Origin: a virus
Virus record (IMG/VR): IMGVR_UViG_3300025632_000005
Span: 1-58,901 of that record
Reading direction: 5' to 3' (one strand)
Length of the DNA stretch: 58,901 nucleotides
In this document: positions 36,279 through 40,808 of the stretch, in pieces
How positions within the stretch are numbered: position 1 is the first letter of the stretch
Layout: each line of letters starts with the position of its first letter
Position numbers and translations under genes: made by a program
Notes under the pieces: model-generated
What the model was told of the DNA's origin: nothing
What the model saw: the letters and a program-made list of their open reading frames with translations, nothing else
The model's database searches: none

Positions 36279-36505
36279 CAGATGATTTAGTAAACAACCC
36301 ACCCCATTACAAATATAATAGTAAAGGTGTCGAGTGTATAGAAGCTATCGAAGCTGCGCTTACACCTGAAGAATACAGAGGATACCTACGTGGACAAGTA
36401 ATGAAGTACTCTTGGAGATGTAATTACAAAGGCAAAAGACTAGAGGATTTACAGAAAGCTCGATGGTATTTAAATAGATATATTGAATTGCTAGAAAAAG
36501 AATGA
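36275..36505 (+). CDS. DUF3310 (SaV-like) protein
   Basis: 76 residues. PPHYKYNSKGVECIEAIEAA and YLRGQVMKYSWRCNYKGKRL followed by EDLQKARWYLNRYIELLE are the DUF3310 signature (HY...G.E.I......F..GN..KY..R...K....DL.KA..YL). Role unknown; DUF3310 proteins sit in phage nucleotide-metabolism and early regions. ATGA overlaps on both sides. Confidence 0.8.
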   Translation: MTDDLVNNPPHYKYNSKGVECIEAIEAALTPEEYRGYLRGQVMKYSWRCNYKGKRLEDLQKARWYLNRYIELLEKE

Positions 36506-36732
36506 TAGTATCAGAACTTCCGATACTTGAAATAATCTGCTCACTCAGTGCATGTGTGTCAGTATACTTGTACGGAAACGGGTCACGAAAGGCACCGTTG
36601 TTTGGTATTTGCTCCCAGTTTTTTTGGTGGTCATGGACTATCCAAGAGGGTCTATACTTTATGATGGTACTGAATGTAGTAATGACATTAATACATATTA
36701 GAAACTTAATTAAAATGAAAGGGAGACCATGA
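36502..36732 (+). CDS. small two-helix membrane protein, PnuC-like
   Basis: 76 residues with two hydrophobic helices (LPILEIICSLSACVSVYLYG and FMMVLNVVMTLIHIRNLIKM) and a WWSWTIQEGLYF link. The pattern (YLYGN...FGICSQFFWW...N...RNLIK) resembles the C-terminal part of PnuC-type nicotinamide riboside carriers that phages carry as single small proteins. ATGA overlap with DUF3310 and the reductase. Transport role is a guess. Confidence 0.5.
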   Translation: MIVSELPILEIICSLSACVSVYLYGNGSRKAPLFGICSQFFWWSWTIQEGLYFMMVLNVVMTLIHIRNLIKMKGRP

Positions 36733-40049: not shown

Positions 40050-40083
40050 TATATATTTAGAAGTGAACACCAACGTCGTCAAT

Positions 40084-40126
40084 AATCCCTAGGGGTGGGT
40101 AATGTAAACCTCTAGGGATTTTTTTT
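40084..40126 (+). terminator. rho-independent terminator of the plus arm
   Basis: AATCCCTAGGGG (40084-40095) pairs with CCTCTAGGGATT (40109-40120) (12 bp with one G-U), loop of 13, then eight T residues (40119-40126). Strong and directional for the plus strand; it separates the early arm from the opposing minus late arm. Confidence 0.9.
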
Positions 40127-40247: not shown

Positions 40248-40322
40248 TTATTTTTCGGCACAAGCATAGCTATTGATTTCAAGACCAACAGATACAACCG
40301 TGATTGATGGTTTAGACCACAT
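40248..40322 (-). CDS. pqqA: PqqA-like PQQ precursor peptide (24 residues)
   Basis: ATG 40322 to TAA 40248. It starts M-W-S-K-P and ends GLEINSYACAEK. Trp2 and Pro5 near the start, then Gly13-x-Glu15-x3-Tyr19 and a small polar end match the PqqA family, where PqqE cross-links the Glu and the Tyr to begin PQQ synthesis. GGAG lies 8 bases upstream (AAATGGAGTTGATT). It is the last gene of the late arm, after the holin. No pqqB-E genes are here, so host enzymes would process it. Small size makes chance similarity possible, but many positions agree. Confidence 0.7.
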   Translation of the reverse strand: MWSKPSITVVSVGLEINSYACAEK

Positions 40323-40397
40323 AATCAACTCCATTTGTTAAAGGTTAACAAACAGTGCTGGTTGCCTTTACGACCGCAGCCCACTGATTATTATATT
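40323..40397 (-). promoter_or_regulatory. spacer with inverted repeat between holin and PqqA-like gene
   Basis: TTGTTAA-AGG-TTAACAA (about 40336-40352) is a perfect inverted repeat 14 bases before the PqqA-like ATG. It could be an operator or a processing hairpin that isolates the short mRNA. No -35/-10 pair is clear. Confidence 0.35.
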
Positions 40398-40808
40398 TTA
40401 CTTCTTCATGTTCTCTCTTGCAACCCCTTTTGATTTTTCAAAAGAACGTAAGCCTCCCATTCCGAGTAAGGCTATCGTTAAAGAAATAAGTTCACCAGTA
40501 TCTATAAAGTTTGGCATACTAATTTCTGGTGCAAACAAGGCTGTGAACCAAGTCATTAGTGGTAGTATAAAGAAGTTTACAAATAAACCTATTGCGCAGA
40601 CCCACATGATTGCTGGTCGTGCTCCTGCTACAAACATGCTTGGATGTTTAGCTGCTTCGGTGTTAGCTTTGGCTTGTTCTTTTGCTAAAGCATTCGCATG
40701 CTTCTGTGACATGGTAGCTATATCGTGAGCTAGGCGTGCTTTTTGGTCTTTGTCTTCTATGAATTTATCAAGTAGCCCAGTAACTGGACCGATGAGTGCT
40801 GTTAACAT
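40398..40808 (-). CDS. holin (3TM, GTA-type)
   Basis: 136 residues. Polar N-terminus with AHDIATMSQKHANALAKEQA, then SMFVAGARPAIMWVCAIGLF, VNFFILPLMTWFTALFA and ISLTIALLGMGGLRSFEK: three membrane segments with the ARPxIMW signature of the gene-transfer-agent type holin family. Punches the inner membrane at the end of infection. TAATG overlap with the 103-residue gene upstream. No endolysin is adjacent. Confidence 0.75.
   Translation of the reverse strand: MLTALIGPVTGLLDKFIEDKDQKARLAHDIATMSQKHANALAKEQAKANTEAAKHPSMFVAGARPAIMWVCAIGLFVNFFILPLMTWFTALFAPEISMPNFIDTGELISLTIALLGMGGLRSFEKSKGVARENMKK

What the first reader, a model, noticed from the sequence alone, without database searches (positions are those of the whole stretch)
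40248..40322. Phage-encoded PqqA-like PQQ precursor peptide
A 24-codon gene at the end of the late arm has the hallmarks of PqqA: short length, Trp2 and Pro5 near the start, and G-L-E-I-N-S-Y-A-C-A-E-K with the Glu-x3-Tyr pair that PqqE joins. PQQ is the cofactor of methanol and sugar dehydrogenases. The maker genes pqqB-E are absent here, so the phage would supply only the substrate peptide. Expressed late beside the holin, it may raise PQQ output, compete with the host PqqA, or be a decoy for the radical SAM enzyme. Seen: ORF, ribosome site, residue pattern. Known: PqqA chemistry. Inference: function.
Basis: partly seen in the sequence, partly recalled or inferred. Interest (0 to 1): 0.92.

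Follow-up and report, generated by a model that had tools for sequence, protein, structure and literature searches.

The report
Phage-carried PQQ precursor peptide with RNA leader
Many aquatic viruses of bacteria carry a tiny gene for the peptide that the host turns into the redox cofactor PQQ, often behind a previously undescribed RNA hairpin, which suggests that they feed the host's methanol- and alcohol-oxidising enzymes while they replicate.

Summary
Window 40248-40322 (minus strand) encodes MWSKPSITVVSVGLEINSYACAEK. It passes the curated PqqA cut-offs of Pfam and NCBIfam and is the last gene of a late operon, after a holin, in a ~59-kb podovirus-like contig without pqqE. One phage PqqA was already published (Lake Baikal, PMC7678222), so the gene type is not new. 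Its extent is. All nine held genomes of isolated Methylophilales phages, from four unlike lineages, carry pqqA; three isolate papers I checked do not mention it. With Glu15 and Tyr19 left free, 120/120 and 123/123 hits keep both. pN/pS is 0.13-0.19. Fifty records have no PqqE and no PQQ-enzyme domain. Peptide type follows the likely host. In the window's group a 36-nt hairpin with compensatory changes and no Rfam match precedes pqqA; found without reference to pqqA, 125 of 126 copies are followed by it. Streamlined alphaproteobacteria with the same peptide ending carry a second pqqA away from the pqq operon. Best reading: an auxiliary metabolic gene that supplies the consumable substrate to host PqqD/PqqE. 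The decoy reading is less likely. Function and the RNA's role are inferred.

The parts
40248..40322 (-). pqqA: 24-codon PQQ precursor peptide MWSKPSITVVSVGLEINSYACAEK (Glu15, Tyr19)
   Evidence: PF08042 and TIGR02107 above curated cut-offs; purifying selection in relatives
40329..40332 (-). ribosome site GGAG of pqqA
   Evidence: sequence; an SD-like purine run precedes the relatives' start codons too
40352..40387 (-). pqqA leader hairpin (model R1): CAGUG-GG-CUG-CG-GUC-loop-GGC-AAC-CAG-CACUG
   Evidence: cmsearch 45.6 bits, E 4e-10, the only hit in the window; 8 of 10 pairs with compensatory changes; 125 of 126 viral copies precede pqqA
40395..40423 (-). possible promoter TTGCAA-N17-TAAAAT that would start transcription near the hairpin's 5' base
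   Evidence: consensus match only, 9 of 12; about as many such sites are expected by chance in the region; weak
40398..40808 (-). holin directly upstream of the hairpin and pqqA
   Evidence: PF11351 56.6 bits; phrog_3427 holin; adjacency kept in close relatives

Best explanation
The gene is a true pqqA used as an auxiliary metabolic gene. The phage makes PqqA. The infected cell's own PqqD binds it, PqqE joins Glu15 to Tyr19, and PqqF/G, PqqB and PqqC finish PQQ. The PQQ would serve the host's PQQ-dependent dehydrogenases (XoxF-type methanol dehydrogenase in the methylotrophs; the enzyme in the window's likely alphaproteobacterial host is unknown) and so supply energy or carbon for virion production. 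In the window's group a conserved RNA hairpin between the preceding gene and the ribosome site probably sets stability or translation of the pqqA message. Shown: gene identity, invariance of the cross-linked residues, selection on the protein, lack of PqqE, host-matched peptide type, tight hairpin-pqqA linkage with covariation. Inferred: expression, modification by host PqqE, metabolic benefit, role of the hairpin.
For: Curated PqqA models met. Glu15 and Tyr19 free in the search yet 120/120 (alpha type), 123/123 (beta type) and 125/125 after the hairpin. Both codons of each residue are used (GAA/GAG 194/49, TAT/TAC 154/89) and pN/pS is 0.19 and 0.13. No PqqE above cut-off and no PQQ enzyme domain in 50 pqqA-bearing records. 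All nine Methylophilales isolate genomes held, of four unlike lineages, carry it, and no other phage record does except ctXG6705 and two records named Acinetobacter phage MD-2021a, one of which was read and is bacterial DNA. Candidate hosts have a second pqqA away from the pqqBCD operon. PqqA cross-linking: PMC10906245. Raising pqqA alone is reported to raise PQQ in Gluconobacter (Wang 2016 as cited in PMC7936290); some methylotrophs keep several pqqA genes (PMC6520949). iscU, an Fe-S scaffold, directly follows pqqA in six phage contigs.
Against: No expression or chemistry data. No isolate carries the window's peptide type, so its host is only inferred. The gene is patchy: close relatives L256, L258 and L317 have the holin but no pqqA after it, so it is not essential. 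PQQ enzymes are periplasmic and PQQ may turn over slowly, so benefit within one infection is not obvious.
Confidence: 0.75

Rival explanations
1. Decoy: the phage peptide binds PqqD/PqqE and ties up the radical SAM enzyme or competes with host PqqA, to lower PQQ or redirect iron-sulfur and SAM chemistry.
For: Only the substrate is encoded; late position beside the holin in the window.
Against: A decoy needs the leader but not the cross-linkable pair; both residues are invariant and the far C-terminus is also kept (Ala20, Cys21 and Ala22 are largely set by the scan pattern, but Glu23 at 90% is not). Phage types resemble host peptides.
Confidence: 0.1
2. Messenger other than PQQ as cofactor: the cross-linked peptide or PQQ itself acts in late infection (redox signal, or release at lysis) rather than as a dehydrogenase cofactor.
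For: In two large groups pqqA sits next to a holin gene, so it may be late.
Against: It also sits after portal, capsid and other genes, and isolate carriers are confined to phages of methylotrophs.
Confidence: 0.08
3. Neutral passenger captured from hosts with extra pqqA copies.
For: Patchy presence; L148 is 91% identical in DNA to a host stand-alone pqqA.
Against: Purifying selection; many genomic sites in unlike phages; presence in all nine held methylophage isolates; linked leader RNA.
Confidence: 0.04

Closest known systems
Phage PqqA of Lake Baikal virus population VP_266 (Coutinho et al. 2020, PMC7678222)
   Same: pqqA in a phage genome, proposed to aid methanol oxidation
   Different: One T4-like population that also encodes methanol dehydrogenase; here pqqA stands alone in many lineages, with a leader hairpin in one group
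Cellular PqqA (PF08042, TIGR02107)
   Same: Length, Trp/Pro leader, Gly-x-Glu-x3-Tyr core
   Different: No pqqE in the phage; the phage copies are single genes
Stand-alone extra pqqA genes of bacteria (Methylovorus, M. extorquens, cited in PMC6520949; L555, L556 here)
   Same: pqqA away from the operon, likely to raise precursor supply
   Different: Carried by the cell, not by a virus; the R1 hairpin was not found in five pqqA-bearing alphaproteobacterial genomes
Auxiliary metabolic genes of phages such as cyanophage psbA (own knowledge)
   Same: Phage replaces a host component that turns over
   Different: Here the component is a ribosomal peptide that becomes a small-molecule cofactor

Membership tests
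PqqA (TIGR02107 / PF08042) | Score above curated cut-offs | tested here: met
   31.2 against 20 bits; 23.5 against 21.1 bits
PqqA (TIGR02107 / PF08042) | Glu-x3-Tyr pair that PqqE joins | tested here: met
   Glu15 and Tyr19 present; invariant in relatives when left free
PqqA (TIGR02107 / PF08042) | Short peptide (about 22-30 aa) with its own start and ribosome site | tested here: met
   24 aa, GGAG six bases before ATG
PqqA (TIGR02107 / PF08042) | Cross-linked by PqqD/PqqE and turned into PQQ | not testable with these tools
   needs biochemistry
pqq biosynthesis operon | pqqE beside pqqA | tested here: not met
   no PqqE in the window or, above cut-off, in 50 other records; pqqB-D not searched by profile in phages
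Phage auxiliary metabolic gene | Host-like metabolic gene inside a phage genome, flanked by phage genes | tested here: met
   holin, terminase, polymerase and RNR in the window; nine isolate genomes
Phage auxiliary metabolic gene | Expressed and beneficial in infection | not testable with these tools
   no transcript or deletion data
Known structured RNA (Rfam 15) | Leader hairpin matches a family | tested here: not met
   no gathering-level hit in the window; at E up to 10 no hit on the leader strand over the hairpin; six relatives gave only a tRNA elsewhere

The most novel reading that the evidence does not exclude
A mobile two-part module, an undescribed small structured RNA plus a stand-alone pqqA, lets aquatic phages control cofactor supply of their hosts; the RNA senses a ligand (PQQ, a lanthanide or a related metabolite) or a host protein and tunes precursor synthesis.
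Probability: 0.3. Interest if true: 0.9.

Novelty: new variant of a known kind. Interest (0 to 1): 0.76.

Why it matters
Gene finders skip 23-29 codon genes, so a common viral metabolic gene has gone mostly unseen: in the isolate methylophages here it is unannotated or overlapped by a hypothetical protein. If it works as inferred, phages across lakes and oceans adjust C1 and alcohol oxidation by supplying a consumable cofactor precursor instead of an enzyme, which could be tested now in cultured OM43 and LD28 phage-host pairs. The leader hairpin is a candidate new regulatory RNA with a clear gene partner.

Tried and rejected
PHROGs gave no PqqA match. Acinetobacter phage MD-2021a is not evidence: its pqqA lies in a full bacterial pqq operon. 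The Maricaulis genome hit L230 is a phage contig with a portal gene in a MAG without PqqE above cut-off. A dedicated promoter for beta-type pqqA was not supported: TATAAT-like sites in 65 of 103 against about 52 in shuffles. Single-sequence folding of the hairpin is no better than shuffles, so the structure claim rests on covariation. The hairpin was not found in 385 alphaproteobacterial genomes, under strict filters that could miss weak copies. MEP431-434, other named Methylophilales phages and partial HIM624-A could not be examined.

Full report
What is there. On the minus strand at 40322-40248 lies a 24-codon ORF, MWSKPSITVVSVGLEINSYACAEK, with GGAG six bases before its ATG. It passes the curated cut-offs of Pfam PqqA (23.5 against 21.1 bits) and NCBIfam TIGR02107 (31.2 against 20). 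It is the last gene of a leftward block after a holin (PF11351) and meets the rightward replication block (polymerase, class II RNR, 2OG oxygenase). The window is an IMG/VR virus record. Its terminase and polymerase are closest to pelagiphages such as HTVC027P/HTVC023P and HTVC115P, at 37-42% identity.

How common it is. Two groups appear: an alpha type (GLEIN[SC]YACAE.) that includes the window, and a beta type ([23 protein letters not shown]). A further scan found rarer forms, among them Methylorubrum-like peptides. In 50,697 phage records, pqqA was found only in Methylophilales phages, ctXG6705 and two records named Acinetobacter phage MD-2021a, of which the one read is bacterial DNA. The Methylophilales set is Venkman, P19250A, MEP301, MEP401, MEP402 and four Melnitz genomes: a Venkman/P19250A group, MEP301, a MEP401/402 pair (MEP402 is filed under Zobellviridae) and a Kyanoviridae myovirus. 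The papers on Venkman, MEP301 and MEP401/402 do not mention pqq genes; the Melnitz paper mentions PQQ only as a medium vitamin. The one published phage PqqA found is Lake Baikal VP_266.

Is the peptide kept as a substrate? The patterns left Glu15 and Tyr19 free. All 120 viral alpha hits (127 counted, including the window copy and six genome loci) and all 123 beta loci keep both. Both synonymous codons occur at each position, and pooled pN/pS is 0.19 (alpha) and 0.13 (beta). These numbers are conditioned on the other residues in each pattern. Holin-anchored loci are not: where pqqA is present after the holin it always has both residues; three holin relatives at about 90% identity lack pqqA.

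What is missing. The window has no PqqE; 50 pqqA-bearing records have no PqqE above cut-off and no PF13360 domain. These records carry the substrate without the first enzyme. PqqB, C and D were not searched by profile in phages.

Context. pqqA sits after at least ten kinds of gene: two holin families, portal, capsid and others. Podovirus-like relatives sharing portal and capsid with the window carry alpha or beta peptides, which suggests that peptide type follows the host and not the phage. In six alpha contigs iscU directly follows pqqA; PqqE needs several Fe-S clusters (PMC10906245), so this fits, but it is circumstantial.

The RNA. Between the holin and pqqA, 40387-40352, lies a hairpin: outer stem, two-base bulge, three-pair stem, CG/AAC internal loop, three-pair stem, loop. 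In 24 variants, 97.5% of cells pair and 8 of 10 pairs show changes on both sides, against 3.8 in shuffles; no slid version comes close. Part of the set was chosen by a filter that asked for pairing. Two pairs escape that bias: the outermost pair (columns 4/37), not in the filter, pairs in 21 of 24 with four types; and the middle pair of the second stem, left as N/N in the scan. That scan ignored pqqA: 125 of 126 untruncated matches have pqqA downstream, its Trp codon 22-36 bases after the hairpin, and the one exception is a GC-rich chance match. Some of these loci come from the same contig. The model finds one copy in the window, one in each of 32 alpha-type loci, and none credible in 100 loci of the beta set. 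About 80 alpha-type loci lack it by the filter. Rfam has no match. It was not seen in 385 alphaproteobacterial genomes; a control search rang on a phage contig in a MAG.

Likely host. 71 of 385 alphaproteobacteria carry pqqA. Streamlined genomes of about 1.4 Mb mostly hold two or three copies (G058, G290, G371; one was seen in G192): MAWTKPMISEISVGLEINSYACAEK, in one genome read beside pqqB, C and D, and MAWTKPTISEISVGLEINSYACAEK away from them, in 28% GC DNA. The phage gene in L148 is 91% identical to the latter over 66 bases. The window's own copy is more diverged (about 70%), so its host is less sure.

Mechanism. PqqA is consumed; PqqB-E are catalysts (established chemistry, PMC10906245). 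Overexpressing pqqA alone is reported to raise PQQ in Gluconobacter, and several methylotrophs keep extra pqqA genes (PMC7936290, PMC6520949). The simplest reading is precursor supply to the host pathway. A decoy would not need an invariant cross-linking pair. The hairpin's job is open: message stability, translation control, or ligand sensing.

Limits. No expression or chemistry. Nine isolates is a small set; several Methylophilales phages named in the taxonomy could not be checked.

Noticed in passing
L126:5932-6330, L203, L153, L200, L219, L192: iscU (TIGR01999, above cut-off in L126) directly follows hairpin and pqqA in six alpha-type phage contigs.
   Followed up: partly
L439 and 10 related loci: A desaturase- or AlkB-like membrane protein precedes pqqA (by eye); no NCBIfam match for the piece tested.
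   Followed up: no
L230 (NZMJ01000006.1): A phage contig with hairpin and pqqA is binned in a Maricaulis MAG that has no PqqE above cut-off.
   Followed up: partly
L248 (CAKLQF020000010.1): Record named Acinetobacter phage MD-2021a holds a bacterial ppk and pqq operon: host DNA in a phage collection.
   Followed up: yes
L247 (Melnitz-1, record 74888-74953): pqqA overlaps an annotated opposite-strand hypothetical protein and lies at the edge of a tRNA-Leu call that looks doubtful; annotation there needs review.
   Followed up: no
L593 (265,895-base contig), L023 (356,312-base contig): Very large viral contigs carry pqqA, one of them Methylorubrum-like.
   Followed up: no
window 40080-40125: Inverted repeat AATCCCTAG...CTAGGGATT followed by a T run on the + strand at the end of the rightward block, a likely terminator between convergent operons; missed by the simple scan.
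   Followed up: no
window 36502-36732: Small protein weakly like the NMN transporter PnuC (PF04973, below cut-off), before the B12-dependent RNR.
   Followed up: no
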